Positions 2,291 to 16,262 of a stretch of 18,406 nt of DNA are shown here, in pieces. The position numbers and the translations under genes are program-made. Source of the stretch: Caldifarciminota bacterium. Its GTDB lineage: Bacteria > Hydrothermota > Hydrothermia > UBA1063 > CAJXJZ01. How positions within the stretch are numbered: position 1 is the first letter of the stretch; every line of letters begins with the position of its first letter. A model generated the notes under the pieces. The model was given only the letters and a program-made list of their open reading frames with translations. It was not told the origin of the DNA and ran no database searches. Location of the stretch: assembly GCA_027033555.1 (NCBI GenBank), contig JALVLE010000004.1:1-18406 (forward strand), in the 5' to 3' direction.

Positions 2291-3444
2291 AACTTAACCC
2301 CCTTCCAGATAATTTCTTCCATTTCTTCTCTTTTTACAAGGTCCTCATATATGTCTTTGATGTCTTTTACTGTGATGTCTCTTCCTCCAAGTCCGAGAAT
2401 ATAACCGTATATAGGCACTCTGGGCTCCACAGGATACATGGCAGACTTGATCTCCTCATAAAATATACCATGATGGCCAAATGATATATTTCTATCAAGA
2501 ACCGCTACCTTTTTTCTGCCCTTTAACATTTCTCTAACCTTCTTAAAGGGGAAAGGTCTAAATGTTTTCATCTTCAAAAGCCCAACTTTCTTCCCTTCCT
2601 TTCTCATTTCATGCACTGCTGCTCTCGCCGTGGATGTCATTGCCCCTGACGTGACTATTACATACTCTGCATCATCCATCATATAGGGCTCAACAAGCCC
2701 ATAATTCCGGCCGAACATCTCATTAAACAACTTCATCTCCCTTTCCATTACATCAACAGCCTTTTCCATCGCTTTTTGCATCTTATATCTGAATTCCATG
2801 TATGTATCCGGTTTTGAGAGAGCACCATAGCTGATGGGTTTTCCTGGTTCAATGGTATATTTCGGCTCATAAGGCGGCAGAAATTCATCCACTTTTTCCT
2901 GATCGTATATTTCAACTGGTTCAGAAGTATGGGAAAGAACAAATGCATCAAGAACAAGCATAGCAGGAAGGAGTACCTGTTCTGCTACCTTATAAGCTAT
3001 AATTACATAATCATAGGCCTCCTGATTTGACTCTACATAGAACTGCATCCATCCTGTATCCCTTTGAGAAAGTGAGTCATTTTGCTCAGTCCATATAGAC
3101 CATGGAGGAGCCATGGCTCTATTAACATTGGCGAGCACAATGGGCAATCTTGCACCTGCTGCCCAGTGAAGCATTTCATGCATGAGAGCAAGTCCCTGTG
3201 CACTTGTGGCAGTAAACGCCCTTGCTCCGGCCGCAGAAGCACCTATACAGGCACTCATAGCAGAATGCTCTGACTCAACATTTACAAAAATTGCATCCAG
3301 TTTCCCCTCTGCCACTATTTCAGACAACAACTCCACTATTGTTGTCTGAGGGGTAATAGGATATGCAGAAATGACCTGCACCCTTGCCGATGTTGCACCA
3401 TAAGATACCGCATGGTTTCCAGTTAAAACCTTCTTAAAACTCAT
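2287..3444 (-). CDS. porA: 2-oxoacid:ferredoxin oxidoreductase alpha subunit (PorA-like), operon 1
   Basis: Alpha subunit carrying the pyrimidine-binding and substrate-pocket domains of the POR heterotetramer. It is 385 residues, the usual PorA length. Motifs: AYPITPQTT at 27-35, whose Thr31 matches the substrate-contacting Thr of the PFOR family; ESEHSA at 57-62, containing the Glu expected to activate TPP; ATSAQGLALMHE; and RAMAPPWSIWTEQNDSLSQR. A transketolase C-terminal-like domain follows, with EYVIVTSGAM and FRPFPF. The start is preceded by AAAGGGGG, which overlaps the end of the delta-like gene. The region coding for residues around TTIVELLSE contains a perfect 11-bp inverted repeat, listed separately. 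The substrate is not determinable: the pocket-side motif (APPWSIW) differs from the SAPINIH of the second alpha subunit. Confidence 0.93.
   Translation of the reverse strand: MSFKKVLTGNHAVSYGATSARVQVISAYPITPQTTIVELLSEIVAEGKLDAIFVNVESEHSAMSACIGASAAGARAFTATSAQGLALMHEMLHWAAGARLPIVLANVNRAMAPPWSIWTEQNDSLSQRDTGWMQFYVESNQEAYDYVIIAYKVAEQVLLPAMLVLDAFVLSHTSEPVEIYDQEKVDEFLPPYEPKYTIEPGKPISYGALSKPDTYMEFRYKMQKAMEKAVDVMEREMKLFNEMFGRNYGLVEPYMMDDAEYVIVTSGAMTSTARAAVHEMRKEGKKVGLLKMKTFRPFPFKKVREMLKGRKKVAVLDRNISFGHHGIFYEEIKSAMYPVEPRVPIYGYILGLGGRDITVKDIKDIYEDLVKREEMEEIIWKGVKL
3320..3349. repeat. Perfect 11-bp inverted repeat inside porA of operon 1
   Basis: TCAGACAACAA (3320-3330), an 8-base loop, TTGTTGTCTGA (3339-3349). 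It lies about 30-45 codons into the alpha-subunit gene, over the codons for QTTIVELLSE. The equivalent part of the second porA has no such repeat, so the protein sequence alone does not demand it. Confidence 0.75.
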
Positions 3445-3447
3445 TTT

Positions 3448-4551
3448 TTACCCCCTTTCAGGTACAAGTATTAGTACACTTCTTGGACATTCGTTTACAC
3501 AAATACCACATCCTTTACAATAGTCATAATTGATAACAGGAAAATCATTAACCCAGGATATAGCTGCGTCCGGACAGAATATATAACAATTCCCACAGGA
3601 ATTACAGTGCCCACAGGAGAAACATCTGTTTCCCTCTCTTACAGCCTCCTCCATTGTATTTATTGTATTAATTCTCTCCTCTGGTTCAAAGTAATCTGTC
3701 ACAATGTTGTTAAAGGATACAGCTCTTGGAGGAGGAGCATCCTTTGTTATTTCCTCTCCTTTTAAATATTGCCAGACTGACTTCGCCGCTCTCTTCCCAA
3801 AGTAAAAATCTCTTGAAATATCCTTTCTCTCAGGCTTTGCTGCAAATATCTTTTCATCCTGTGTTTTAAATGTAAGCTTATCTTCCACATCTTTCTTATC
3901 TGTAATCACGGCATCAACTTTATTCTTTAATTCATCCGGTTCCCTGTCCTCCGCAACTACCTCTATTCCCCATCTTTCTAACCTCTCAACCTCTCTTCTT
4001 ACTTCCTCATCAGAAAGTCCCAGTCCATCAAATGGTTTTGCAGCGTAGAGAGTAACATCCATCCCATACATGTAAGCAAAATAAGCGGCACTCATCATTG
4101 TCTCAGATCCGCCAACCACAGCCACCTTTTTACTCAAACTTTCCATTCTCTCTGGGTAAAGCCCCTTTTCATACGCAATGCTACCGGTAAAGCCCTCAAG
4201 CTCTCTGATGGAAATGGGCTTATCGTACTTCTTTCTATTACAGGCTATTTCACATTTTGCTTTACATAACTTTCTCGTAAGAAGGGGAAAAGGATTATTC
4301 CGGAGTATCTCTATTGCACCCTCCTCAGGCTTTCCACGCGTCAAAAGGTCTATAAAGGACTGAACCCATACCTTAAGTGGACAGGCATTCTGACAGGGTG
4401 CATTTTGTTCTTCCAGCACAGGCTTTACATTTCGCCATGACCCTGTTTTATTCACCAGGGTAAAACCCTGGGAAATTGGGGCCTCAGGCAGATCTTTTAA
4501 AGACTCTACTTTTATTATTTTATCTGTAAACTCAAAGGATTCCCTGGCCAT
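3448..4551 (-). CDS. PorD/GltD-like fusion: iron-sulfur delta subunit with degenerate flavoprotein scaffold
   Basis: Occupies the delta position of POR operon 1 but has 367 residues instead of about 95. Residues 25-45 (TGSWRNVKPV) match the N-terminal arm of the normal delta subunit in operon 2 (TGDWRTQKPV). Residues 50-120 resemble the Fer4_20/GltD N-terminal iron-sulfur domain, with C53, C57, C96, C100 and C104. At 142-172 a Rossmann-like strand reads VAVVGGSETMM where GltD-type proteins have an FAD-binding GxGxxG. The NADPH-binding half is missing: the sequence passes from a stump near residue 220 to FFGKRAAKS-like GltD C-terminal sequence (FYFGKRAAKSVWQYLKGEE, 249-267). RCFSCGHCNSCGNC and a second CxxCxxCxxxCP (C310-C326, C345-C355) supply at least two [4Fe-4S] clusters. 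It probably wires electrons from the enzyme to ferredoxin or a partner; flavin binding looks unlikely. The start has an AAGGAG site. Confidence 0.85.
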   Translation of the reverse strand: MARESFEFTDKIIKVESLKDLPEAPISQGFTLVNKTGSWRNVKPVLEEQNAPCQNACPLKVWVQSFIDLLTRGKPEEGAIEILRNNPFPLLTRKLCKAKCEIACNRKKYDKPISIRELEGFTGSIAYEKGLYPERMESLSKKVAVVGGSETMMSAAYFAYMYGMDVTLYAAKPFDGLGLSDEEVRREVERLERWGIEVVAEDREPDELKNKVDAVITDKKDVEDKLTFKTQDEKIFAAKPERKDISRDFYFGKRAAKSVWQYLKGEEITKDAPPPRAVSFNNIVTDYFEPEERINTINTMEEAVREGNRCFSCGHCNSCGNCYIFCPDAAISWVNDFPVINYDYCKGCGICVNECPRSVLILVPERG

Positions 4552-4554
4552 AAA

Positions 4555-5115
4555 TTAACTCCTTATTTTCACGCTTTCAAATGCCTCTTTCGCTGCATTC
4601 ACATTTTCTTCCTTTTTAACTGGTGCATTTTCAAGTATGGCTTCTTCAAGTGCTTTAAGGCTCACAATACCTGTAACCTTTGAAAATGCTCCTAAAATGG
4701 CAGTATTTACGATGGGTTGTGTCTTACTTCCCAGCCTCCATTTTACCGCTATACTCGCTGCATCCACGGTAGCAACTCTATAATCCTGCGGTATATCAAG
4801 AGCCTCTGGAGGTTCAGGAGTGTTTATGATAACCCATCCCCCCTTCTTAAGGCCTTCAAGGATGTTTTGCGTTGCAAGAAGCGTTGGATCAAGCACCACC
4901 ACATGATCAGGCTCATATATAAAAGACCGCACTATAAGCTCTTTCTCACTATCTGCTATCCTGGTAAATGCTGTAACCGGCGCCCCCCTTCTTTCCACTC
5001 CATACTGGGGGAAAGACTGGGCATACTTACCGTCCTTGAATGCTGCATCAGCAAGTACTTTTGATGCCACAACAGTACCCTGTCCTCCTCTGCCATGCAT
5101 TCTTATCTCTATCAT
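4555..5115 (-). CDS. porG: 2-oxoacid:ferredoxin oxidoreductase gamma subunit (PorG-like), operon 1
   Basis: Gamma subunit of the POR complex, first gene of operon 1. The protein is about 186 residues. Family signatures: MHGRGGQGTVVASKVLADAA at the N-terminus, FPQYGVERRGAPVTAFTRI, and DHVVVLDPTLL. I start it at the ATG of 5113-5115 because AAGGAGG lies 5 bases upstream; an in-frame TTG at 5130 would add five residues but would place the ribosome site inside the gene. The gamma subunit closes over the CoA-binding side in characterised PORs (family knowledge). The stop is 3 bases before the delta-like gene's ATG, consistent with one mRNA. The promoter is read at 5148-5176. Confidence 0.93.
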   Translation of the reverse strand: MIEIRMHGRGGQGTVVASKVLADAAFKDGKYAQSFPQYGVERRGAPVTAFTRIADSEKELIVRSFIYEPDHVVVLDPTLLATQNILEGLKKGGWVIINTPEPPEALDIPQDYRVATVDAASIAVKWRLGSKTQPIVNTAILGAFSKVTGIVSLKALEEAILENAPVKKEENVNAAKEAFESVKIRS

Positions 5116-5120
5116 TTTAT

Positions 5121-5127
5121 CCTCCTT
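5121..5127 (-). promoter_or_regulatory. Ribosome binding site fixing the porG (operon 1) start
   Basis: AAGGAGG on the minus strand, 5 bases before the ATG at 5113-5115. It decides against the slightly longer TTG start at 5130. Confidence 0.8.
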
Positions 5128-5147
5128 CAAAGGAACTCATTGTATTT

Positions 5148-5258: not shown

Positions 5259-5831
5259 ATGGCAAAAAAGTATCTGGAAATCAGATGGCACGGTAGAGGT
5301 GGAATGGGCGCAAAAACAGGAGCCCTTTTACTCGGAGAAGCTATGATGCAGCAGGGCAAATACATACAGGCTTTTCCCGAATATGGCCCTGAAAGGAGAG
5401 GCGCGCCGGTTACAGCTTATAACAGAATAGCTGATGAACCTATTAGAATCCATTATGGAATAAAGAGCCCCGATGTAATTATGATCCTTGACCCCACTTT
5501 GCTCAACACAGAAAATGTATGGAGAGGCGTACGAGAGGATACATTGTTCATTGTCAATTCAGCCCTCTCTCCGGAGGAACTTAAAAAGAAATTCAACATA
5601 AAAAACAAACTCTTTGTTGTAAACGCCACGGAAATATCAGAATCTATAATAGGCAGAAACCTGCCCAACACTCCCATGCTCGGCGCTTTTGTAAAAGCCA
5701 CAGGAGCGCTTCCCTTTGACAAATTTTTAAAGAGTGTTGAAGAGCGCCTTCGGATGAAATATAAGGAAGATATTGTAGAAAAGAACCTGAAAGCTATAAA
5801 AAAGGCTTACGAGGAGGTAAAAGAAGGATGA
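5259..5831 (+). CDS. porG: Pyruvate:ferredoxin oxidoreductase gamma subunit (PorG), operon 2
   Basis: Gamma subunit, 190 residues, first gene of the plus-strand POR operon. It shows WHGRGGMGAKTGALLLGEAMM near the N-terminus, FPEYGPERRGAPVTAYNRI, and DVIMILDPTLLNTENV, and is clearly a paralogue of the operon 1 gamma subunit. The ATG is preceded by AAAAGGAG at good spacing and a strong promoter. Its end overlaps the porD start by 4 bases (ATGA). It works with PorD, PorA and PorB encoded directly downstream as a soluble cytoplasmic heterotetramer (family knowledge). Confidence 0.95.
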   Translation: MAKKYLEIRWHGRGGMGAKTGALLLGEAMMQQGKYIQAFPEYGPERRGAPVTAYNRIADEPIRIHYGIKSPDVIMILDPTLLNTENVWRGVREDTLFIVNSALSPEELKKKFNIKNKLFVVNATEISESIIGRNLPNTPMLGAFVKATGALPFDKFLKSVEERLRMKYKEDIVEKNLKAIKKAYEEVKEG

Positions 5832-6115
5832 AGTTAAAATCCTGGAAAGAACTACCTGAAGGGGCTATTATCCCAGGTTCACCTAATTCAGCTGAATTTA
5901 AAACAGGTGACTGGAGAACACAAAAGCCTGTAATAGATTTTAATAAGTGCACCCATTGCCATTTATGCTGGCTATATTGTCCTGACACATCTGTCCTGAC
6001 AGAAAATGGTAAGATTACAGGTTTTGACTATGACCACTGTAAGGGCTGTGGAATCTGTGCAGAAGTATGTCCTCCAAGAATTAAGGCAATAACAATGGTG
6101 AAGGAGGAAATATAA
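5828..6115 (+). CDS. porD: Pyruvate:ferredoxin oxidoreductase delta subunit (PorD, 2x[4Fe-4S] ferredoxin), operon 2
   Basis: Standard delta subunit of 95 residues that passes electrons from the catalytic core to free ferredoxin. An N-terminal arm with TGDWRTQKPV is followed by two clusters: CTHCHLCWLYCPD and CKGCGICAEVCPP, each C-x2-C-x2-C-x3-C-P. It starts inside the porG stop (ATGA) and its TAA shares a base with the porA ATG (TAATG), so the operon is tightly coupled. It is a useful normal reference for the oversized delta-like protein of operon 1, which shares the same arm and second cluster. Confidence 0.95.
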   Translation: MKLKSWKELPEGAIIPGSPNSAEFKTGDWRTQKPVIDFNKCTHCHLCWLYCPDTSVLTENGKITGFDYDHCKGCGICAEVCPPRIKAITMVKEEI

Positions 6116-7302
6116 TGGAAAAAGGGAAATTCATTAAGATGGCTCTCACAGGGAACGAGGCCTATGCATATGCAATGAAACAAATAAACCCTGACGTGGT
6201 TGCCGCGTATCCCATTACTCCTGCCACAGAAATCGTCCAGATCTTCTCTAAATACGTTGCAGATGGGCTCGTTGACACAGAGTTTGTCCCGGTAGAATCA
6301 GAACACTCGGCTTTAAGTGCATGCGTGGGTGCCTCTGTGGCTGGCGCAAGAGTGATGACAGGTACAGCGTCACAGGGGCTTGCTCTTATGCATGAGGTAC
6401 TATACATAGCAGCTGGATTAAGGTTGCCCATTGTAATGGCTGTTGTGAACAGGGCTCTTTCTGCCCCGATCAACATTCACGGTGACCAATCTGACACAAT
6501 GGGATCAAGGGATTCCGGCTGGATACAGATATACACAGAAAATGCAGATGAAGCATATCACTCTGTCATCATGGCTGTAAAAATTGCAGAAACTGTTAAT
6601 CTCCCCGCAATGGTAATGCTTGACGGGTTCATTATCAGTCACGAGATGGAAGTGGTGAATACATTGCCGGATGAGGCAGTAAAGGAGTTCATTGGCGAAA
6701 GAAAACCCTTATATAATCTCTTTGACTTTGATAACCCTGTTACTGTTGGCCCCCTTGATCTGCAAGACTATTACTTTGAGCACAAAAGGCAGCAAATGGA
6801 GGCAATGTTTAATGCCAAAAAAGTAATTCCTCAGGTAACAAAAGAATACAACGAAAAATTTGGCACCAATATTCCAGCTTTTGTAGAACCATACAGACTT
6901 GAAGACGCAGAATATGCAGTGGTTGCAATGAGCTCTGCAGCAGGTACCATGAAAGAAATTATAGACCAGTGGAGAAATAAAGGTGAAAAGGTGGGACTTT
7001 TGAGATTGAGAATAACCCGTCCATTCCCTTATGAAGAGATAAGGAAACACCTTGGAGGTCTGAAAGCAGTAGGTATAATGGATAGAGCGGAATCTCATTC
7101 CACACAGGGCGGCCCCATGCTTCAGGAAATAAAAGCAGCCCTTTATGATCTTGAGACCAGACCTAAAGTTACAGGATTTGTATTCGGACTTGGCGGAAGA
7201 GACTTTGATGATGAACAGGCAAACAGAGTTCTTACAATGATAAAGGATTTAAAAGATGGAAAAGATTTACCGCTATACTCCTTTATAGGAGTAAGAGAAT
7301 AA
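6115..7302 (+). CDS. porA: Pyruvate:ferredoxin oxidoreductase alpha subunit (PorA), operon 2
   Basis: Alpha subunit, 395 residues, full length. It carries AAYPITPATE (Thr35 at the substrate pocket), ESEHSA at 61-66 with the expected TPP-activating Glu, TASQGLALMHE, and RALSAPINIHGDQSD followed by SRDSGWIQ. The SAPINI motif is the form I associate with pyruvate synthases. A C-terminal domain with ITRPFPYEEI and FGLGGRDF completes the fold. AAGGAGG sits 7 bases before the ATG. It forms the catalytic core with PorB immediately downstream. The likely reaction is pyruvate + CoA + oxidised ferredoxin to acetyl-CoA + CO2, reversible; the substrate is inferred from motif likeness only. Confidence 0.94.
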   Translation: MEKGKFIKMALTGNEAYAYAMKQINPDVVAAYPITPATEIVQIFSKYVADGLVDTEFVPVESEHSALSACVGASVAGARVMTGTASQGLALMHEVLYIAAGLRLPIVMAVVNRALSAPINIHGDQSDTMGSRDSGWIQIYTENADEAYHSVIMAVKIAETVNLPAMVMLDGFIISHEMEVVNTLPDEAVKEFIGERKPLYNLFDFDNPVTVGPLDLQDYYFEHKRQQMEAMFNAKKVIPQVTKEYNEKFGTNIPAFVEPYRLEDAEYAVVAMSSAAGTMKEIIDQWRNKGEKVGLLRLRITRPFPYEEIRKHLGGLKAVGIMDRAESHSTQGGPMLQEIKAALYDLETRPKVTGFVFGLGGRDFDDEQANRVLTMIKDLKDGKDLPLYSFIGVRE

Positions 7303-7312
7303 GGAGGATAGA

Positions 7313-8260
7313 ATGCAAAGATTGAATTTAAAACAGCTTGCAGAGAGGTCTCAGGGATTTGCACCCGGTCACAGGGCATGCGCCGGTTGTGCGTTTCCAT
7401 CAATTATAAGGATGCTTCTTGCAGCAGGAGCAGATTATAATCTCGTAATAGCCAATGCTACAGGGTGTATGGAAGTTGTTACTACAATCATGCCCTACTC
7501 TGCGTGGCCCGTGCCATGGGTACACAATGCATTTGAAAACGCCGCAGCAACAATAAGTGGAATTGAAAGAGCATACAGGGCTCTCGTCAAAAAAGGGAAA
7601 ATCAAAGAAACTGGCAAACCTGTAAAATTTGTGGCCATTGGAGGAGACGGTGGAACATATGATATAGGCTTCCAGGCCCTTTCTGGAGCCATTGAAAGAG
7701 GACATGATTTTCTTTATGTACTTTACGATAATGAAGGCTATATGAATACAGGCATTCAACGTTCAAGTGCAACACCAATGTATGCACACACCACAACCTC
7801 TCCTTCTGGAAAAGTGATACCCGGAAAACAACAGCCCAGAAAAGACCTCACAAAGATTATAGCAATGCATAAACCAAGATATGCAGCCCAGGCGTCACCT
7901 GCGTTCTGGAATGACCTTGTTAAGAAATTTCAAAAAGGCCTTGAAGTAGAAGGACCAGCTTTCGTTGCAGTTTTATCAACATGTCCTCCAGGATGGGGTA
8001 CCCCCGAGCATATCAGTATAGAACTCACGAAACTGGCAGTTGAAACACGTTTCTGGCCGCTTTATGAATATGAAGACGGCTATTGGAAGGTGAACTACAA
8101 GCCACGCAAGTTTGTACCAGTAGAGGAGTTTCTGAAACCACAGGGCAGATTTAAACACATCTTGAAAAGACCGGATCTTATAAAACAAATTCAGGATGAA
8201 ATAGAAAAGAACTGGGAAGAACTCCTCTGGCTTGAGTCAAGGAAACCCAAAGAGGAGTAA
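7313..8260 (+). CDS. porB: Pyruvate:ferredoxin oxidoreductase beta subunit (PorB), operon 2
   Basis: TPP-binding beta subunit, 315 residues. Cluster ligands: C23-x2-C26 in GHRACAGC, C52 in NATGC, and the Cys of STCPPGW near residue 221. The TPP motif GGDGGTYDIG lies near residue 110, followed by YDNEGYMNTGIQRS. NATGCMEV and PYSAWPVPWVHNAFENAAA are the forms seen in characterised archaeal and Thermotoga-type pyruvate enzymes, which supports a pyruvate assignment for this operon. AAGGAGG precedes the ATG, 10 bases after porA. An 11-bp hairpin starts 9 bases after the stop and probably ends the transcript. Confidence 0.95.
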   Translation: MQRLNLKQLAERSQGFAPGHRACAGCAFPSIIRMLLAAGADYNLVIANATGCMEVVTTIMPYSAWPVPWVHNAFENAAATISGIERAYRALVKKGKIKETGKPVKFVAIGGDGGTYDIGFQALSGAIERGHDFLYVLYDNEGYMNTGIQRSSATPMYAHTTTSPSGKVIPGKQQPRKDLTKIIAMHKPRYAAQASPAFWNDLVKKFQKGLEVEGPAFVAVLSTCPPGWGTPEHISIELTKLAVETRFWPLYEYEDGYWKVNYKPRKFVPVEEFLKPQGRFKHILKRPDLIKQIQDEIEKNWEELLWLESRKPKEE

Positions 8261-9075: not shown

Positions 9076-9801
9076 ATGAAATCGCTTGTCATCATTCCTA
9101 CCTACAACGAAAAAGAAAATATCAAAGAGATCATTCACTCTGTATTAAAAGTTGTTCCGGAAACAGATATTCTTATAGTGGATGATAATTCACCTGATGG
9201 AACCGGTAAAATTGTAAAAAAACTTATGGAAAAAGACAAAAGAATACATTTAATTGAAAGGGAAGGGAAACTGGGACTTGGGACAGCGTACGTGACCGGA
9301 TTTAAATTCGCTATAGAAAAGGGATATGACTGGGTGATTCAAATGGACGCGGATTTTTCCCATAATCCAGAGGACATACCCCGTTTTTTTCAATATACTG
9401 ACGAGTACGATCTTATCATAGGTTCCCGATACGTAAATGGAGTAAGCGTGGTAAATTGGCCTCTATCCAGGCTTTTTCTTTCTTACTTTGCCAATTTATA
9501 TGCACGAATTGTTACAGGTGTGCCCGTAAAAGACCTTACCGGTGGCTTCAAATGTATAAAAAGCGATGTCCTCAAAGCCATAGACCTTGATTCTATAAAG
9601 GCAGATGGATACGGTTTTCAAATTGAAATAAATTTTCTCGCCTACATTAATGGCTTTAAAATAAAAGAAATTCCTATTATATTCATTGACAGAAGGGCCG
9701 GGTATTCCAAAATGTCAAAAAAGATTATCTGGGAAGCTTTCTGGCTTGTTTTAAGGTTAAGACTGGAAAAGATTCTGGGAAAAAAAAAGATTAAAAATTA
9801 A
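9076..9801 (+). CDS. Polyprenyl-phosphate mannosyltransferase-like GT2 glycosyltransferase (DPM1/Ppm1 family)
   Basis: GT2 enzyme of the dolichyl/polyprenyl-phosphate mannose synthase type. These transfer a sugar, usually mannose, from a nucleotide sugar to a polyprenyl phosphate at the inner face of the membrane. It has 241 residues. Motifs: IPTYNEKENI at 7-16, DDNSPDGT at 36-43, QMDADFSHNP at 89-98 (metal-binding DAD), IGSRYVNG, DLTGGFKC and GYGFQIE, then EIPIIFIDRRAGYSKM. It lacks the C-terminal membrane helices of some relatives, so it should be soluble or peripheral. The stop codon overlaps the convergent kinase gene's stop by 4 bases. The sugar donor is not readable from sequence. No Shine-Dalgarno site precedes the ATG. 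Confidence 0.9.
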   Translation: MKSLVIIPTYNEKENIKEIIHSVLKVVPETDILIVDDNSPDGTGKIVKKLMEKDKRIHLIEREGKLGLGTAYVTGFKFAIEKGYDWVIQMDADFSHNPEDIPRFFQYTDEYDLIIGSRYVNGVSVVNWPLSRLFLSYFANLYARIVTGVPVKDLTGGFKCIKSDVLKAIDLDSIKADGYGFQIEINFLAYINGFKIKEIPIIFIDRRAGYSKMSKKIIWEAFWLVLRLRLEKILGKKKIKN

Positions 9802-9807
9802 TCTTTT
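9785..9807. terminator. AT-rich palindrome at the convergent gene ends (possible weak two-way terminator)
   Basis: AAAAGATTAA (9785-9794), loop AAA, TTAATCTTTT (9798-9807): a perfect 10-bp stem that contains both stop codons of the convergent GT2 and kinase genes. It has A and T runs on its flanks but only one G-C pair, so it would be weak as an intrinsic terminator. No other terminator is visible at this junction. Confidence 0.35.
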
Positions 9808-11888
9808 ACGAACTTCCAGAGCTTTAAAGTACCTTTTTCATCTCCTGTCATGAAATAAAGGCTATGAGGTGCATACCCCATCGCAGTTACCCTGTGCTGG
9901 GCTGAAAAACGTGAAATCTCTGATTTTTCTTCCATATCAAAGACATGTACATCCTCACCTGTTGCAAAAAGCAACATGCTTTTGTCCGGAGTTGTGGTTA
10001 TTGCCGTTATATTTTGTGAAGTAAGCTTCCCCTTCCATACCGGTTTTAGATTTCGTGCACTCCATATAATAAGCTCCCCATCTTCAGTAGCAGAGATGAT
10101 TTCACCTGTGGTAACCTTAAAAGTTATATAGTTTATCCAGCCATCATGCTCTTTTAAAATTTTCTTAAGCTTTCTCAGAGCAATGTCCCATATGTAAATG
10201 TGGCCATTATTGGTACCGGCAAAGAGATACCTGGAAATAGTCTCCAGTCTTAATACCCACCCTCCAAGGTCCGAAACCTCAAATATTTTATTAAACGTGA
10301 CTGTATCCCAAGCTTTTATGCTACCGTCGGCAAAACCTCCAAAGACAAATTGTTCATCCTGTGAAAAGACAACGGTATTTGCTTCAAAATTTGACCCTTT
10401 TATGGCCTTCGCAAGTAACCAGGTTCCTACCTCCCATACCCTTATCTCTCCTGTGGCACTTGCTGCAGCGAGTTTCCTTGCATTAGGAGAAAGTTTAACA
10501 TCAAGGACGTGCGGAGAAATCCCTGAAGAGGCTTTCAAGGCAACAAGCCTTTGCCAGGTTTTTGTGCTGAAAACTTTAACAATTCCATCCCAGCTCCCCG
10601 TTGCGAGCAAACTACCATCCTCTGAAAATTCTATTTTAGCCACTTTATTATTCATTGCCCTGAGGCTTCCCACAAGTTTTACAGGCATTGCGCTATGTGA
10701 AGAGATTATCTTCTTAAGTCTTTCTCTGAAAGTTTTACTCTGGGTAGTTGTGTTCTTTCTGTATGAAATACTGCCCTGAGTTTTGGGAGGTTCAGCTTCC
10801 TGTTTACTTTCAAGCTCTTTTATCAAAGCCTTTGCTTTTTCTCTCGGGATTCCAAGATCCTCTGCTGACTTGAGTATAGCCTGCTTCTGTTCTTCCGATA
10901 ATGCACCGGTTATACCCATAGACTGGATGAACTTTCTCAATGTCGCCATTTTGGTGACAACTTCAAGGTCTGCAAGGGCTTCTTTTGCGTTTTTAAACCT
11001 TAACGAGGGATTGGGATTTGTCATTTTAACCAAGAATTCTACAAGCTCCTGCCTGAAGTTGGAGAGTACATTGTAATCTATTTCTTTTGTTTCTTTATTA
11101 ATAAACTTATCAGGATGAAGCCCGGTTAAAAGCTCAATAGCCACAACGCCCAGAGAATACAAGTCTGAAGATAAGGTGGGTTCACCTTTCCTCTGCTCTG
11201 GCGAAACATATCCCTTTGTATAAATTATGGTTTTATGTTTTAAAGCCTCCTTGGAGAGTTCCTTTACTGCTCCAAAGTCAACAAGATATGTTTTGCCATT
11301 TGAGACGATGAGGTTCTCTGGTTTAATATCTCTATGTACAAGAGGAGGGTCAAGGCTCTGTAAATATACCAGTGTATCAAGAACATCGTGCAGTACTTTG
11401 AGCACAAAATCTTCAGATTGCTTTCCTTTAGATTCCAACAATACTCTCAAGTTTTTCCCTTCAATGTAGTCCTGCGCGAGATAAATCTTGCCCCTATCTT
11501 CAAAGAAACCGTGTATCTTGGGGATCAAAGGATGGTTGAGTTTTGCAAGAATCATCCCCTCTTTCATTATTACATCAGAACTCTTTTTTTTCTGGGTGAA
11601 TTCTTTAAGCACAACCTTTCTGCCGAACAGTAATTCATCTGTTGCAAGATAGGTTCTTCCGAAACCGCCTTCACCTATCATCTTCAAGAGCCTGTATCTG
11701 CCCTTGACAAGCCTGGTTATGGGTTTTAAAGGACTGCCACAAACACGGCAGAACTCGGCATCTTTCGGATTCTTGCTGCCGCATACTTTACAGACAAGAC
11801 TTCCCTGCTCAAGCGGAGCTCCGCATTTATTGCAGAATTTGGCATTATCTGGATTCTTTGCTCCACACAATGGACAGATTTTACTCAT
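9798..11888 (-). CDS. Double zinc-ribbon Ser/Thr protein kinase with C-terminal WD40 propeller
   Basis: Eukaryote-like Ser/Thr kinase, 696 residues, no membrane segment. Two zinc ribbons come first (C5, C8, C19, C22 and C33, C36, C47, C50). The kinase domain spans about 64-320: GEGGFG loop at 72-77, K95 in VVLKEF, E110, HRDIKPEN at 185-192 with catalytic D187, DFG at 204-206, GYVSPEQ, and DLYSLGVV. All catalytic residues are present, so it should be active. A helical stretch (320-360, SEEQKQAILKSAEDLGI) and a low-complexity linker lead to seven WD40 repeats (about 405-696), enough for one closed propeller, probably a substrate platform or sensor. It is the last gene of the vWA-FHA-PP2C-kinase cassette, 10 bases after the phosphatase stop. 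Targets are unknown; the vWA and FHA proteins are the obvious candidates. Confidence 0.93.
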   Translation of the reverse strand: MSKICPLCGAKNPDNAKFCNKCGAPLEQGSLVCKVCGSKNPKDAEFCRVCGSPLKPITRLVKGRYRLLKMIGEGGFGRTYLATDELLFGRKVVLKEFTQKKKSSDVIMKEGMILAKLNHPLIPKIHGFFEDRGKIYLAQDYIEGKNLRVLLESKGKQSEDFVLKVLHDVLDTLVYLQSLDPPLVHRDIKPENLIVSNGKTYLVDFGAVKELSKEALKHKTIIYTKGYVSPEQRKGEPTLSSDLYSLGVVAIELLTGLHPDKFINKETKEIDYNVLSNFRQELVEFLVKMTNPNPSLRFKNAKEALADLEVVTKMATLRKFIQSMGITGALSEEQKQAILKSAEDLGIPREKAKALIKELESKQEAEPPKTQGSISYRKNTTTQSKTFRERLKKIISSHSAMPVKLVGSLRAMNNKVAKIEFSEDGSLLATGSWDGIVKVFSTKTWQRLVALKASSGISPHVLDVKLSPNARKLAAASATGEIRVWEVGTWLLAKAIKGSNFEANTVVFSQDEQFVFGGFADGSIKAWDTVTFNKIFEVSDLGGWVLRLETISRYLFAGTNNGHIYIWDIALRKLKKILKEHDGWINYITFKVTTGEIISATEDGELIIWSARNLKPVWKGKLTSQNITAITTTPDKSMLLFATGEDVHVFDMEEKSEISRFSAQHRVTAMGYAPHSLYFMTGDEKGTLKLWKFVKD

Positions 11889-11898
11889 AACAGCTTCT

Positions 11899-13371
11899 TT
11901 AGAAAAGTTTATTCCTCCTTACTTTTCCCATAATTATTGTCACATTATCTATTCCACCTCTTGAAAGCGCAAGGGACATGAGTCTCTGAGTCGCACTCTT
12001 TACATCATCTTCCTTTAAAGCATCCTCAATTTCAGAAAACTTCACAAGATCAGTAAGACCATCGCTGCAGAGCAAAAAACCTAACTCTTTTTCTATTCTG
12101 TATTTGGAAATGTGTGGATTGAGCTTGGTGGATTCTATAACCCCCACTGCCTGAGTAAGTGCTTTTTTATTGGAAAACATTACATCATCCACAGATACTT
12201 TAAGAAGACTTTTTCCATCATAAAGCATCACAGAAGAGTCACCCACATTAAAGTACCAGATTTCCTCCCCAAATACAAGAAGACCAGCTACTGTAGCTCC
12301 CATTTTCTCTCGCTCAGTCTTTGCACCTGCATTCTTCTGAAAAACCACAACATTTGCCCTCATTATAGCTCTTTTAATGACAGGCGCAAGATCAAAAAAT
12401 ACATGATCTTTTGATAAATATGAGAGAATCTCCTCTGATATCACCTTTACTATCAGGCGACTTGCCTCCTCTCCTCCCCGATGCCCTCCCATCCCATCCG
12501 ACACAATATACAAGCCTACTTTTGTGTGAGTTGGTGCAAGTCCATCAAAGCTCTGCCGGGCAAATTCCACCATTACGTAATTATCTTCATTATGTCCCCT
12601 TACAAGGCCCTGCGACGTCATCCCAAAGGATTTTATATCACAGGGAGCATACTCCGCGAAAGAAGCATATAAAAAGTTTACAAGATCGGAAACACTTTGC
12701 TTTTCTTCAAATTCTTTGCTATTTATAAGGTTATAAAAGAAGCTATCCGGCTCCGCCTCAAGGGACCTGTAAAACTCCTTCAGCCATGTTACTGAAGAGA
12801 GATACCCATCCTTTTCCACTTCGCTTACATTCACAATGAGTCTGCCATTGGCATCAAATAATATGCCAGAAGATGCAAAGTAGAGCTTTGAGTGCCTTAG
12901 CACCTTATTGGCAACCTCAAAAACCAGCCTGAGCTTTTCACCATTTTTTAAAATATCCCAGTATTCTTTGAGAGAATAAATGGGATAAGCAGGTAAAAGC
13001 ACAGGTATTCTTTGTTCATCATCTACAAATATAAGGTCATAAAAAATACCCTGACTGGTATAAAAAAAATCTTCAAGAGATACAGGCTTATATTTTTCAA
13101 GTGTAATATTCTCCTCTCTAAGCACGGTATAGCCATCTTTAACTTCTACCACCTTATACCGTTCATCATCAAGGGAATTTAATACAGCAGGTACAATTAC
13201 CTCTTTTCTCAGCCGGGTACCACAATAAGGACAGGTATCCAGGGAAAGATCAACTTTTTTAAGGCACCCTTCACATATTGTCTTGGTAAGGTCAAAACCA
13301 CAATACGGACAAAAAGCAGCGTTTCTCAAAACTTCTCTCCCGCAATGGGGACACAGTCTTCTTCTCTTCAA
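11899..13371 (-). CDS. Double zinc-ribbon PP2C-type protein phosphatase with degenerate kinase-like middle region
   Basis: Metal-dependent Ser/Thr phosphatase, 490 residues, likely the eraser for the kinase downstream. Zinc ribbons: C7, C10, C21, C24 and C33, C36, C47, C50. PP2C spans about 250-490: RGHNEDN, VSDGMGGHRGGE with metal Asp, MGATVAG, VGDSSVMLYDG, LCSDGLTDL and GGIDNVTIIMG, so all metal-binding Asp motifs are present. Residues about 65-240 read like the skeleton of a protein kinase without catalytic residues: RYKVVEVKDG, then LPAYPIYSLKEYW at the hinge position, then LRLVFEVANKVLRHSKLYF and GILFDANGRLIV where HRD and N would be. The start codon is TTG, fixed by GGAGGAG 8 bases upstream and by the first zinc ligands at residue 7; no ATG serves. 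The gap to the FHA gene is 2 bases. Confidence 0.9.
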   Translation of the reverse strand: MKRRRLCPHCGREVLRNAAFCPYCGFDLTKTICEGCLKKVDLSLDTCPYCGTRLRKEVIVPAVLNSLDDERYKVVEVKDGYTVLREENITLEKYKPVSLEDFFYTSQGIFYDLIFVDDEQRIPVLLPAYPIYSLKEYWDILKNGEKLRLVFEVANKVLRHSKLYFASSGILFDANGRLIVNVSEVEKDGYLSSVTWLKEFYRSLEAEPDSFFYNLINSKEFEEKQSVSDLVNFLYASFAEYAPCDIKSFGMTSQGLVRGHNEDNYVMVEFARQSFDGLAPTHTKVGLYIVSDGMGGHRGGEEASRLIVKVISEEILSYLSKDHVFFDLAPVIKRAIMRANVVVFQKNAGAKTEREKMGATVAGLLVFGEEIWYFNVGDSSVMLYDGKSLLKVSVDDVMFSNKKALTQAVGVIESTKLNPHISKYRIEKELGFLLCSDGLTDLVKFSEIEDALKEDDVKSATQRLMSLALSRGGIDNVTIIMGKVRRNKLF

Positions 13372-13373
13372 AT

Positions 13374-13994
13374 TTACATCTCCTCCAGCAAGAATTTCAG
13401 GGTTTTACCAAGTATTATTTCGTCTCCATCCTTTAATTTCACCTTTTCGTTGGGGGGAAGCTTTTTGCCATTAAGATATGTCCCATTAGTGGAACCTATA
13501 TCCATTATAAAAATTTCTCCCGTATTCCCATCCAGTATAATTTTGGCATGTCTTCTTGACACAAGTTCAGCCCCCTTTATACCTGAAAGGTCTATATCCG
13601 GAACATTTTTTCCACTTTTCCTTCCCACAAGATATTCCTTGACCTTCCCCTCATACATGGAAAGTTCTATAACAAATTCATTGTCACGATTGGTGAGTTT
13701 AAAGTTTTTTATTACCCTCCCTTCTTCTCCGGCTTCCTCTGGAGGAACAAGGAACTCATCCTGTGATTCTTTCTCATGCAGCGGAATACCACACACCTGA
13801 CAGAATTTTGCATCCGGTGGATTCCAGTGCCCATTTGGACAATAAATTCCAATCCCCTCTCCTATATCTTCTATCCCCTCCTCCTGTGCTTCAACGTTTA
13901 GCTCATCTACTTCCTCCAGATTAAAAAGACATTTTTCACAATACTCCACAAAATCCTTATTCCTATAGCCACATATTGGACATATCTTAGTCAT
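13374..13994 (-). CDS. Zinc-ribbon FHA-domain protein
   Basis: Phosphothreonine reader of 206 residues. Two zinc ribbons: C5, C8, C19, C22, then a variant second ribbon with C52, H56, C65, C68; between them is an acidic linker (27-47). A Pro/Glu linker precedes a C-terminal FHA domain (about 95-206) with the core residues GR (124-125), S146 and H149 in VSRRHAKI, and GSTNGTYLNG (167-176), so phosphopeptide binding should be intact. It overlaps the vWA gene's end by 8 bases, implying co-translation. By analogy with other FHA/kinase/PP2C sets, it probably binds a phosphorylated partner made by the neighbouring kinase; the partner is inferred, not seen. Confidence 0.93.
   Translation of the reverse strand: MTKICPICGYRNKDFVEYCEKCLFNLEEVDELNVEAQEEGIEDIGEGIGIYCPNGHWNPPDAKFCQVCGIPLHEKESQDEFLVPPEEAGEEGRVIKNFKLTNRDNEFVIELSMYEGKVKEYLVGRKSGKNVPDIDLSGIKGAELVSRRHAKIILDGNTGEIFIMDIGSTNGTYLNGKKLPPNEKVKLKDGDEIILGKTLKFLLEEM
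13380..13386 (-). promoter_or_regulatory. Ribosome binding site fixing the TTG start of the phosphatase
   Basis: GGAGGAG on the minus strand, 8 bases before TTG at 13371-13369. It lies inside the last codons of the FHA gene. The only ATG near it is followed at once by a stop, so TTG is the initiator. Confidence 0.75.
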
Positions 13995-15201
13995 CTTTAA
14001 TCACCGTTTTGGTGAACATCTTGGTTTTAATTAAATCCTCATTTGAAAGATCTACACCCTCTCTTATTTTGGTTACATTCTGATCAATAATAGTGGCAAG
14101 GTCTTCATCATTAAGCTTTGTAGCTGTCATCTGCATTGTTTGCAACAGTGTGAGAGCCTGTTCAGGTGTCCCACCCTCAAGAAGCTCATTAACAAGCTCA
14201 GACTGCAGATACACACTCAGTCTCTCTATAAGAGTATTTAGCTCTTCCACATTGTCATAAAGGGTACACGGGATTCCTTCTTTCCACGGTAGTTCTTTCC
14301 GCTGGCCATCAAGATCAAAATAGCTTATTTTGAAATCAAAAAGATACTTCTGGTCGCCCTTCATAAAAAGCTGCAAAAGAACGTCTTTACTCTCTCCTTC
14401 AAATATATCTCCTATATCAAGAATATACTCCTGTACATCAAGCACTGGTTCTAATGCTACAATCTGAGGTTTAACAATAAAAGCAGGATTAAGCTCAGAA
14501 AAACTTACACCTTCATGAAGACGAAGGGTTATTTCAAGGTTTTTAGCTACTGTTTTCCTTATTTTATTTGCTTTTTCTGAAAAAATCTCCTTAAGTTCTC
14601 GTGGTTCCTCCACATAAAACATTTCACCCTTGGTAATATCTGCAAGCTTCTCCAGCAAAGAGGGACTCCAGTGCTTTCCAAGTCCAATGGTAAATATTGA
14701 AATTCCAAGTTCTCTGGCCTTTGTAGCCATTTCAATGGCATGCTCATCTGAACCGTGTTCATTTTTCCCATCTGTGAGCAATATAATCCAGTTAACGTAT
14801 CCATCAAGCTTCACCTTCTCAAGTTCCTTAATACCAGCCTCCAGCCCCTCATCTATGCATGTCCCTCCCATAGCCTCAATAGTGCTTATAAGATGTTTAA
14901 CCCTCTTCCTATCAGGTCCATAAAGCCGCGTATTTTCAAGTAAAACCTCCACTTCGCTATCAAACATAACTATACTTACTCTATCCTCCTCGGTAAATAG
15001 GTCAAGAGCCCTTTTCAGACCCGCCTTAAGGCTCTCAATGGGTGCCCCATCCATTGAACCGCTTTTGTCAAGGACAAAGGCCACATTTAGACGAGGAGGC
15101 TTTTCCACCTTATCCCCATGGACTGAAAACAGGAAAAACCTCTGCACTTCTTTTTTATTTGGATCAGGTAACTTGTTCAGTCCATATTTAATAGTAAACA
15201 T
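13987..15201 (-). CDS. von Willebrand factor A domain protein (MIDAS intact)
   Basis: Soluble vWA protein, 404 residues from the ATG at 15201. The vWA domain (about 37-215) has a full metal-ion-dependent adhesion site: D45-x-S47-x-S49, T114 in GGTC, and D144 in LLTDG. A beta-rich region (about 225-320) and a helical C-terminal part follow, ending in a Thr/Lys-rich tail (TKMFTKTVIKDD) that could be phosphorylated and read by the FHA protein. An in-frame TTG at 15240 would extend it by 13 residues, but that TTG is itself the first base of the -35 box, so I reject it. The ATG lies 9 bases after the -10, with no Shine-Dalgarno site, implying a leaderless message. It is the first gene of the phosphorylation cassette. 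No signal peptide or membrane helix is seen. Confidence 0.9.
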   Translation of the reverse strand: MFTIKYGLNKLPDPNKKEVQRFFLFSVHGDKVEKPPRLNVAFVLDKSGSMDGAPIESLKAGLKRALDLFTEEDRVSIVMFDSEVEVLLENTRLYGPDRKRVKHLISTIEAMGGTCIDEGLEAGIKELEKVKLDGYVNWIILLTDGKNEHGSDEHAIEMATKARELGISIFTIGLGKHWSPSLLEKLADITKGEMFYVEEPRELKEIFSEKANKIRKTVAKNLEITLRLHEGVSFSELNPAFIVKPQIVALEPVLDVQEYILDIGDIFEGESKDVLLQLFMKGDQKYLFDFKISYFDLDGQRKELPWKEGIPCTLYDNVEELNTLIERLSVYLQSELVNELLEGGTPEQALTLLQTMQMTATKLNDEDLATIIDQNVTKIREGVDLSNEDLIKTKMFTKTVIKDD

Positions 15202-15210
15202 AGCAGTATT

Positions 15211-15240
15211 ATTATAATGCACTATATGCGATACGGTCAA
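15211..15240 (-). promoter_or_regulatory. Promoter of the vWA-FHA-PP2C-kinase cassette
   Basis: On the minus strand, TTGACC (15240-15235), 18 bases, perfect TATAAT (15216-15211). The vWA ATG begins at 15201, so the expected transcript start (about 15204) leaves only a few leader bases. It lies between the GAF gene's stop and the vWA start, and no terminator precedes it, so read-through from upstream genes is also possible. Confidence 0.7.
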
Positions 15241-15251
15241 TAATTAGAAAG

Positions 15252-16262
15252 CTATTCTATATCAGAGTAGCTTACTATTTTGTTCTTGCCTCGGTTCTTT
15301 GCCTCAAAAAGAGCCTCTTCCACGTGATTCATAAGATCATTATAACTCATACCTTCCAGAAGTTCTGCGACTCCAATATTTAGCGCCAGTGTAATATTTT
15401 TACCTTCAACTTTAAGCGGCCAGTCACTTATATACTCTATAATTTCCTCAGCTTTTTTAAAGGCACCCTTCTCATTTTCGCCCATGAGCACTACCATAAA
15501 CTCGTCTGCAGTGTATCTTGCTGGTATGTGCACAGGTTCAAGACGCTCAAGTAAAAGTTCTCCAAACCTTCTCAGCAAAGCATCCCCAAACTCAAAACCA
15601 TATTTTTTATTTATCTTTTTCATGCCATTTATGTCAATAAGCAAGACGGAAACACTATTTTCTTTCCGCCCACGCATGCTTTCCCTCTCCAGGATGGAAC
15701 GGACATAAAAATAATTGTACAATCCGGTTACAATGTCTTTTATCTGTCGCTTTCTGAGTTCTTCAAATAACTCATTGTTATACAACGCAAGGGCAGCATA
15801 TTCTGCAAAAATTTTTAATATTTCCACATCCTCTTCAGAAAAGCTTCTTGGCTGTCTGGAATACACATAGAGCACGCCCTTAACCTTATCGTTGTGAATA
15901 ATTGGAACACCAATAAAAGAACGAATCTTACCCATTTCCAGGAAGGGATGGTGCCCAAAAGGACTTTCATCTGTATTTTCAACTATAAGGGGCTTTCTGG
16001 TGTTAACTATTGTGTAAGACGCTCCTCTTTTTCTTACGAACTTGTGAATATCAAATCTGTGATTGGCATCTGAAGACACGCCTTTGACCCACATTTCCTT
16101 TTCTGGATCGTATAATATAATACTTGAGTAACTCTCATTAAAAAGCTCATCAGCCTTGGTAACAATAAGATCCAGCAGACTATCCAGGGGTTTTAAAGCA
16201 TTAATTTCCCTGCCAACTTCAAGTAAAGCACGCAGGGAACCAAGGAGCCTGCTCTCTTCCAT
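15252..16262 (-). CDS. GAF sensor protein with degenerate GGDEF domain (TADEF)
   Basis: Cytoplasmic signalling protein of 336 residues. The N-terminal half (about 20-165) is a GAF domain: SYSSIILYD, RKPLIVENT and RSFIGVPIIHNDKVKGVLYVYS. A short linker leads to a GGDEF-type domain (about 172-332) with DIVTGLYNYFY, LLIDINGMKKINKKYGFEFGD and NIGVAELLEG. The signature itself is TADEF at 251-255 instead of GGDEF, and no RxxD inhibitory site precedes it, so diguanylate cyclase activity is doubtful. It may bind GTP or act as a partner module. The ATG is 1 base after the serA stop, so it shares that operon. Whether it controls the phosphorylation cassette downstream is a guess from position. Confidence 0.88.
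   Translation of the reverse strand: MEESRLLGSLRALLEVGREINALKPLDSLLDLIVTKADELFNESYSSIILYDPEKEMWVKGVSSDANHRFDIHKFVRKRGASYTIVNTRKPLIVENTDESPFGHHPFLEMGKIRSFIGVPIIHNDKVKGVLYVYSRQPRSFSEEDVEILKIFAEYAALALYNNELFEELRKRQIKDIVTGLYNYFYVRSILERESMRGRKENSVSVLLIDINGMKKINKKYGFEFGDALLRRFGELLLERLEPVHIPARYTADEFMVVLMGENEKGAFKKAEEIIEYISDWPLKVEGKNITLALNIGVAELLEGMSYNDLMNHVEEALFEAKNRGKNKIVSYSDIE

What the first reader, a model, noticed from the sequence alone, without database searches (positions are those of the whole stretch)
9798..15240. Self-contained phosphorylation cassette: vWA + FHA + PP2C + kinase, three of them with paired zinc ribbons
Seen: four consecutive overlapping or nearly abutting genes with their own promoter encode a vWA protein, a phosphothreonine reader (FHA), a phosphatase (PP2C) and a kinase with a WD40 propeller. 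The last three each begin with two zinc ribbons. Known: kinase/PP2C/FHA sets control type VI secretion and other machines, and vWA proteins often accompany them. Here no secretion, MoxR or Ter genes are nearby, and all proteins look cytoplasmic. Inference: the zinc ribbons are a common docking module that assembles one signalling complex, with the vWA protein as scaffold or effector. The combination of ribbons, degenerate kinase region and WD40 propeller in one operon is the best candidate here for an undescribed system.
Basis: partly seen in the sequence, partly recalled or inferred. Interest (0 to 1): 0.72.

Follow-up and report, generated by a model that had tools for sequence, protein, structure and literature searches.

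The report
Bacterial ArnAB-like phospho-switch operon
Four neighbouring bacterial genes appear to form a self-contained protein-phosphorylation switch whose core pair resembles a motility-control pair known from hot-spring archaea, and the same set recurs in several distant bacterial groups.

Summary
The four-gene cassette is real: a vWA protein, a zinc-ribbon FHA protein, a zinc-ribbon PP2C phosphatase and a zinc-ribbon kinase-WD40 protein. The genome belongs to candidate division WOR-3, judged by named relatives. Gene order is kept in 8 of 9 genomes of its order. Equivalent cassettes occur in Anaerolineae (all four genes beside 35 of 46 full-length vWAs), Nitrospirota (8 of 12) and one Bacillota genome. 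The best solved-structure matches are ArnB and ArnA, the phosphorylation-dependent archaellum regulators of Sulfolobus. The vWA C-terminus carries a T-[KR]-x-[hydrophobic] motif: 65 of 66 cassette vWAs against 1 of 72 other vWA ORFs. It resembles ArnB T363-R-K-I, an ArnC phosphosite that supports fast ArnA binding. A cyanobacterial homologue, Sll0103, is phosphorylated at several threonines of the neighbouring region. I infer a kinase-written, FHA-read, PP2C-erased switch on the vWA protein; signal and output are unknown. Structure prediction could not be run. Not filed as 'the Arn system': kinase and phosphatase differ, and Pfam shows no ArnB_C match.

The parts
13987..15201 (-). vWA protein, 404 aa from ATG 15201: MIDAS vWA domain, middle region (beta-sandwich in ArnB), Thr-rich C-terminal region and tail; ArnB-like
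14047..14250 (-). region of the vWA protein (residues about 318-385) weakly aligned to the ArnB regulatory helical bundle; T351, T370 and T377 align with phosphorylated T361, T380 and T387 of Synechocystis Sll0103
   Evidence: helical fold inferred
13999..14025 (-). C-terminal tail TKMFTKTVI (residues 393-401) with two T-[KR]-x-[hydrophobic] sites; proposed phosphothreonine docking site for the FHA domain
   Evidence: phosphorylation inferred
13374..13994 (-). FHA protein, 206 aa: two zinc ribbons (residues 5-22 and 52-68) plus FHA domain (121-196, window 13407-13634); ArnA-like
11899..13371 (-). PP2C phosphatase, 490 aa: double zinc ribbon (7-51), middle region of unknown fold (58-243), PP2C domain (246-488)
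9798..11888 (-). Ser/Thr kinase, 696 aa: double zinc ribbon matching the 4-Cys prefix of kinases, Hanks kinase domain (65-305, window 10974-11696), WD40 propeller (about 405-693)
15211..15240 (-). sigma-70-like promoter match (11 of 12) just upstream of ATG 15201; number of such sites not above chance

Best explanation
The operon encodes a closed phosphothreonine switch built on a bacterial counterpart of the archaeal ArnA-ArnB pair. The zinc-ribbon FHA protein is loosely tethered to the vWA protein, as the ArnA ribbon is to ArnB. On a signal sensed through its WD40 propeller and/or redox-sensitive 4-Cys ribbons, the kinase phosphorylates several threonines in the C-terminal region and tail of the vWA protein (candidates T351, T355, T359, T370, T377, T393, T397). 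The FHA domain then grips a tail pThr-[KR]-x-hydrophobic motif and turns the loose complex into a tight one. The PP2C removes the phosphates and resets it. The complex then controls an unknown output; a cell-surface or type IV pilus programme is the best guess by analogy. Shown here: gene order, domains, intact motifs, recurrence, the tail motif, best PDB matches to ArnB and ArnA. Shown by others in relatives: ArnC phosphorylation of ArnB and ArnA-FHA binding; multi-site phosphorylation of Sll0103. Inferred: that this kinase, phosphatase and FHA act on this vWA protein, and the signal and output.
For: Cassette in 8 of 9 genomes of the order. Same-strand partners within 5 kb of full-length vWAs: WOR-3 7 of 7 fetched loci (plus the window); Anaerolineae FHA 45 of 46, kinase 44, PP2C 38, all 35; Nitrospirota FHA 10 of 12 (both misses within 83 nt of a contig end), PP2C 11, kinase 9, all 8; Bacillota 1 of 1. 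Best PDB match of the vWA profile: ArnB, 8s05_A, E 7.6e-27; window alone E 4.6e-14, next 3.7e-11. Best PDB match of the FHA protein: ArnA, 5a8i, E 4.5e-8, ribbon and FHA aligned in order. Tail motif in 65 of 66 cassette vWAs, in 23 of 23 top-ranked database homologues (P0001 is the window's own) and in 89 of 97 further ones, every one with an organism name being cyanobacterial; 1 of 72 other vWA ORFs. T397 is one of six invariant columns in the C-terminal alignment of 13 sequences from four groups. The profile aligns its TRiv with ArnB QTRKI; by the paper's numbering that is T363-R-K-I, phosphorylated by ArnC within 5 min, and T359A/T363A weakens early ArnA binding. Sll0103 T361, T380 and T387 align with window T351, T370 and T377. 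Six of 11 Sll0103 phospho-events fall in a spkB mutant; SpkB has a Cys-rich N-terminal extension under thioredoxin control, and the window kinase passes the 4-Cys-prefix model, 28.7 against 24 bits.
Against: No phosphorylation or binding is shown for any cassette protein. The FHA match to ArnA is barely ahead of the next chain (E 4.5e-8 against 9e-8), and its ribbon stretch alone is weak, 10.4 bits. The C-terminal match to ArnB is weak: 8.9 bits, i-Evalue 7, inside the full profile; alone, ArnB E 0.057 (12th) and ArnE E 0.18, behind designed repeat proteins. Pfam lists no ArnB_C for the window protein (that the library holds such a model was not checked). The motif does not sit in one column: cyanobacterial T-R-I-V aligns with T393, the Thr of the other groups with T397; T393 is Leu in the six Anaerolineae, Nitrospiria and Bacillota rows and T397 is Ser/Ala in cyanobacteria. 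T351 and the other helical sites are not Thr in the Anaerolineae and Nitrospiria rows, and T370/T377 not in the f2 family. Two of five mapped Sll0103 sites (T349, T384) are not Thr here, and Sll0103 abundance itself falls about 50% in the spkB mutant. Cyanobacterial gene neighbours could not be inspected. Most control vWAs differ over the C-terminus, so they are a loose control; 11 reach the profile end, none with the motif. L048 (vWA-FHA fusion) and L079 (vWA beside FHA) lack the C-terminal motif. Eight of 46 Anaerolineae vWAs lack a PP2C hit; five of them (L142, L170, L176, L177, L178) have at least 2 kb of upstream sequence in hand. ArnB sites are redundant, so no single tail site need be essential.
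Confidence: 0.66

Rival explanations
1. Ribbon-scaffold model of the first reader: the ribbons of the FHA protein, phosphatase and kinase are one docking module that assembles a complex on the vWA protein, and phosphorylation regulates something else.
For: Three proteins carry N-terminal ribbons; the ArnA ribbon binds ArnB directly in a crystal structure.
Against: The Thr tail and the FHA pThr-binding residues would be unexplained; in Anaerolineae my ribbon pattern matches 52 of 56 FHA ORFs but 20 of 55 kinase and 10 of 37 PP2C ORFs.
Confidence: 0.12
2. TerY-P-like triad (vWA, PP2C, kinase) as in E. coli yegI/pphC/yegL, with an FHA protein added.
For: Same three activities in neighbouring genes; PMC7159879 describes zinc-ribbon kinase, PP2C and standalone vWA in actinobacterial GAP1-N2 systems (passage).
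Against: YegL matches the vWA only weakly, over the vWA domain (BLASTP E 2.6e-6; best profile domain 15.5 bits); PphC and YegI give no profile match. No Ter gene recognised in the window.
Confidence: 0.06
3. The C-terminal motif is structural and the FHA domain reads the autophosphorylated kinase or an outside target; the vWA protein is a metal-dependent effector.
For: FHA domains can bind kinase activation loops (recalled; a GarA-PknB reference title says so); the motif shifts by four columns between groups.
Against: The motif is in 65 of 66 cassette vWAs and 1 of 72 other vWA ORFs; the similar ArnB site is phosphorylated and supports ArnA binding.
Confidence: 0.13

Closest known systems
ArnA-ArnB module with kinases ArnC/ArnD and phosphatase PP2A (archaellum regulatory network, Sulfolobus acidocaldarius; PMC12852372, PMC6509490, PMC7472852)
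   Same: vWA protein with a Thr-rich C-terminal region; partner with N-terminal zinc ribbon and C-terminal FHA; neighbouring genes (Saci_1210 and Saci_1211 by locus tag; 'often encoded together', PMC4858521); a T-R-K-I site; best PDB matches of both proteins
   Different: Bacterial; kinase and phosphatase sit in the same operon; phosphatase is PP2C, not PP2A; kinase carries zinc ribbons and WD40, not the OB and tetratricopeptide-like regions of ArnC; two ribbons in the FHA protein; no Pfam ArnB_C match; output unknown
Synechocystis Sll0103 and kinase SpkB (PMC10651672, PMC4379935)
   Same: Same vWA family with a T-R-I-V-type tail in its relatives; multi-site Thr phosphorylation in the C-terminal region; kinase with a Cys-rich N-terminal extension
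   Different: Gene neighbourhood and FHA partner not examined here; described in print as a predicted membrane-embedded Ca2+-regulated chloride channel; spkB is slr1697, so not next to sll0103
TerY-P triad / E. coli YegI-PphC-YegL (TerY-P name recalled)
   Same: vWA, PP2C and kinase encoded close together
   Different: Only weak vWA similarity and no PP2C or kinase profile match; no FHA gene annotated in the 30 kb shown
Type VI secretion PpkA/PppA/Fha1 set (PpkA vWA domain seen in PMC1262709, Fha1 as PpkA substrate in PMC6213207; rest recalled)
   Same: Kinase, PP2C, FHA and vWA domains used together
   Different: No secretion gene recognised in the window; FHA match to the TagH model far below its cut-off, 28.9 against 120.25 bits; the vWA here is a separate protein

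Membership tests
ArnA-ArnB module | vWA protein whose closest solved relative is ArnB | tested here: met
   8s05_A best at E 7.6e-27 for the profile and 4.6e-14 for the window protein
ArnA-ArnB module | Partner with N-terminal zinc ribbon and C-terminal FHA encoded next to it | tested here: met
   8-nt overlap in the window; ArnA (5a8i) best PDB match, by a small margin, with ribbon and FHA in order
ArnA-ArnB module | C-terminal regulatory helical bundle (ArnB_C) | tested here: inconclusive
   In-order but weak alignment to ArnB; no ArnB_C among the window protein's Pfam matches; fold prediction unavailable
ArnA-ArnB module | Thr phosphosites in the C-terminus, including a T-R-K-I-type site | tested here: inconclusive
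   Motif present in sequence in 65 of 66 cassette vWAs and aligned to ArnB; phosphorylation not tested
ArnA-ArnB module | Phosphorylation-dependent FHA binding | not testable with these tools
   needs purified proteins
ArnA-ArnB module | PP2A phosphatase and ArnC-type kinase (OB and tetratricopeptide-like regions) | tested here: not met
   PP2C and zinc-ribbon kinase-WD40 in the operon instead
TerY-P triad | TerY/YegL-type vWA | tested here: not met
   only weak vWA-domain similarity to YegL
Type VI secretion phospho-regulation | T6SS structural genes nearby | tested here: not met
   None among the 8 window proteins scanned nor recognised by reading the other ORFs; whole genome not searched
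PD-T4-6 antiphage kinase | Defence kinase of that family | tested here: inconclusive
   Kinase scores well (E 3.7e-65), but the matches lie in the Hanks kinase region and no other scanned protein matches PADLOC (5 proteins scanned)

The most novel reading that the evidence does not exclude
A portable, self-contained ArnAB-type phosphothreonine switch (vWA substrate, zinc-ribbon FHA reader, own kinase and own PP2C) exists in at least WOR-3, Anaerolineae, Nitrospirota and Bacillota, with its vWA component also in cyanobacteria. All use a C-terminal T-[KR]-x-hydrophobic tail as the FHA docking site, and the module couples redox or nutrient state to cell-surface programmes in both bacteria and archaea.
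Probability: 0.4. Interest if true: 0.75.

Novelty: new variant of a known kind. Interest (0 to 1): 0.62.

Why it matters
ArnA-ArnB is a well-worked phosphothreonine switch in archaea, and the 2026 structure paper names bacterial proteins of ArnB shape without, in the sections I read, linking them to an FHA partner or to phosphorylation. Here the pair occurs in bacteria together with a kinase and a phosphatase gene, and a short tail motif predicts the docking site. That makes a direct test possible with four genes, gives a framework for the multi-site phosphorylation of Synechocystis Sll0103, and offers a simple signature (vWA tail plus adjacent zinc-ribbon FHA) for annotating many genomes.

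Tried and rejected
TerY-P triad by comparison with E. coli yegI/pphC/yegL: rejected. Plasmid-borne relatives of the cyanobacterial vWA: 51 records matched, none covering 80% of the query; the two inspected (L121, L122) have no FHA, PP2C or kinase in their (incomplete) gene tables. Degenerate kinase in the PP2C protein: not supported by hhalign or hmmsearch. A fifth partner: none shared by both WOR-3 families by inspection; in 47 non-WOR-3 loci one small-protein family recurs in 16. Pilus link: T2SSE-family ATPases match in 11 of 11 genomes searched (10 over the cut-off), including G004, which lacks the cassette, so presence is uninformative. Viral contigs with the cyanobacterial vWA alignment: 74 pattern matches, none confirmed. 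The FHA homologue search named no cyanobacterial partner (21 proteins). PADLOC matched only the kinase of the five proteins scanned.

Counting notes: L046 and L144 are the same locus and are both among the 46 Anaerolineae vWAs. Of 57 hit rows I fetched 40 regions, mostly the higher-scoring rows. 'Anaerolineae' is the class of the genome of L044 (record title: Ardenticatenales bacterium); it includes the genome of L046 (title: Anaerolineae bacterium). In Nitrospirota one of 13 loci (L224) drops out because its vWA is cut at the contig end. The window itself is not among the 7 WOR-3 loci. L048 and L079 (vWA with FHA) were counted among the 72 controls.
Full report
WHAT IS THERE. The window is a contig of a genome of candidate division WOR-3, inferred from named relatives of the same genus and order. 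It holds four minus-strand genes in the order vWA, FHA, PP2C, kinase, spaced by an 8-nt overlap and gaps of 2 and 10 nt.

CONSERVATION IN THE LINEAGE. Of nine genomes of the order, eight carry the set in the same order; G004, 99% complete, has no vWA match. In the own genus the flanks are SerA, a GGDEF gene (missing in G002) and 2-oxoacid:ferredoxin oxidoreductase genes; in the second family they are other genes, such as a CAYFNTFYN-type and a guanylate-kinase-like gene (names read from sequence, not scanned). The cassette therefore keeps together while its surroundings change. Among 147 WOR-3 genomes the full-length vWA occurs in these eight only; in the other 21 genomes with hits the match covers about the vWA domain alone. 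In L019 the kinase is split into two ORFs.

DISTANT RELATIVES. One scan of bacterial and archaeal genomes with the vWA alignment kept the best 80 loci. Ten hold vWA, FHA and kinase, nine of these PP2C too (L049 starts at a contig edge): three WOR-3, five Chloroflexi-type, one Nitrospiria and one Bacillota. Whole-genome searches then found the vWA in 47 of 100 genomes of the class of L044, and full-length in 12, cut in one, of 80 genomes of the phylum of the Nitrospiria locus. Counts for the fetched loci: Anaerolineae, 46 full-length vWAs, FHA 45, kinase 44, PP2C 38, all 35; Nitrospirota, 12 vWAs, FHA 10, PP2C 11, kinase 9, all 8; Bacillota 1 of 1. The vWA-FHA pair is thus the steadiest part; PP2C is sometimes absent. 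A quick tree puts WOR-3 beside cyanobacteria (SH-aLRT 99), the other three groups on the other side (midpoint root, short search).

LINK TO ARNA-ARNB. The vWA profile's best PDB match is 8s05_A and the FHA protein's best is 5a8i; the vWA lead is clear, the FHA lead is slight. PMC12852372 identifies 8S05 as the ArnA-ArnB complex and 5A8I as ArnA (abstract, sections 2.1 and 2.2 and the Discussion read, plus passages). There the ArnA zinc ribbon binds unphosphorylated ArnB, ArnC phosphorylates threonines of the C-terminal bundle, and the FHA domain then binds. The profile alignment continues weakly into the bundle (8.9 bits) and ends with TRiv against QTRKI of ArnB. Taking SIETT as 350-354 from the paper, that Thr is T363, one of three sites phosphorylated almost to completion within 5 min; T359A/T363A diminished binding at short times. 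The C-terminal region alone is marginal (E 0.057 and 0.18), so the fold there is likely but not shown.

THE TAIL. T-[KR]-x-[LIVMF] occurs in the last 40 residues of 65 of 66 cassette vWAs, at 3.75 per 100 residues against 0.37 in the rest of the same proteins; in 23 of 23 top-ranked homologues and 89 of 97 further ones. Of those eight exceptions seven keep the Thr with Ala at +3 and one lacks the Thr. Of 72 vWA ORFs from loci outside the cassette set one has it; most of these differ over the whole C-terminus, so the control is loose. In the WOR-3 f1 family there are two candidates (T393-K-M-F, T397-K-T-V); in f2 it is T397-K-M/L-V/I. In the alignment the cyanobacterial Thr falls on T393 and that of the other groups on T397, so the motif, not the column, is what persists. 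In 17 cyanobacterial sequences T, R and the following K-T of the tail are invariant. A hydrophobic +3 residue is a preference of several FHA domains (recalled). Sequences within a group are related, so counts overstate independence.

INDEPENDENT PHOSPHORYLATION DATA. Synechocystis Sll0103 belongs to this family: a Planktothrix hit bears that name, and the published peptides fit the family sequence; its own sequence was not fetched. Reported sites are T349 and T361 (PMC4379935, passages), and T380 with T384 or T387, 11 events in all, six reduced in a spkB mutant in which the protein is about half as abundant (PMC10651672, abstract and section 24 read, passages; supplements not seen). T361, T380 and T387 map to window T351, T370 and T377; T349 and T384 to E339 and Q374. 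The same paper mentions loss of motility and altered pilin levels in the mutant and thioredoxin control of the Cys-rich N-terminus. Archaeal ArnA also represses UV pili genes with ArnB (PMC10470591, passages). PMC4858521 says arnA and arnB are often in one predicted operon but never inside T4P or archaellum loci, and that ArnB-like vWAs more often go with MoxR/GvpN ATPases (passage). A surface output is thus an analogy, not evidence, for WOR-3.

LITERATURE. Searches (open-licence PMC only; one search listed 10 of 309) brought up no paper that, in what I saw, describes a bacterial vWA/zinc-ribbon-FHA/PP2C/kinase operon or ties bacterial proteins to ArnA-ArnB phosphorylation. Seen as passages only: PMC6509490, PMC7472852, PMC10470591, PMC7159879, PMC1262709, PMC11188069, PMC4858521, PMC6213207, PMC5898192, PMC7744417. 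Other listed papers were seen as listings. PMC12852372 says the ArnB three-domain shape is widespread, names a Catenulispora protein and YfbK, and calls it 'mostly not' involved in multi-phosphorylation. PMC7159879 reports an actinobacterial zinc-ribbon kinase, PP2C and vWA association. PMC1262709 cites clustering of FHA, kinase and phosphatase genes in M. tuberculosis. The TerY-P paper is recalled, not seen. Subscription papers are not covered.

VERDICT. A real, recurrent operon, best read as a bacterial variant of the ArnAB phospho-switch with its own writer and eraser. Mechanism moderately likely; signal and output open.

Noticed in passing
L154:8442-8684, L153:5152-5436 and 14 further Anaerolineae loci: A small-protein family lies directly downstream of an FHA gene in 16 of 47 loci compared (15 ORFs of 80-94 aa, one longer overlapping ORF in L172); possibly a lineage-specific fifth partner.
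   Followed up: partly
window 15252-16262: A GAF-GGDEF gene lies directly upstream of the cassette in three of four genomes of the genus but is missing in G002, so it is a neighbour rather than a part.
   Followed up: partly
window 1352-5130 and 5259-8260: Two divergent sets of 2-oxoacid:ferredoxin oxidoreductase-like genes stand back to back (read, not scanned).
   Followed up: no
L019:5801-7902: The kinase gene is split into two ORFs in G007, either a frameshift or an assembly error.
   Followed up: no
L048:1472-4066: A single protein joins a vWA domain and two FHA domains beside a PP2C gene; it lacks the C-terminal tail but has T-R-I-I near its N-terminus.
   Followed up: no
L061:1728-3497: The PP2C of the Bacillota cassette is fused to a kinase-like domain whose catalytic loop reads HRN and whose DFG position reads SGF, suggesting a pseudokinase.
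   Followed up: no
L149 (G224:C51): Two full-length vWA genes and several kinases lie in one Anaerolineae locus, suggesting duplication of the module.
   Followed up: no
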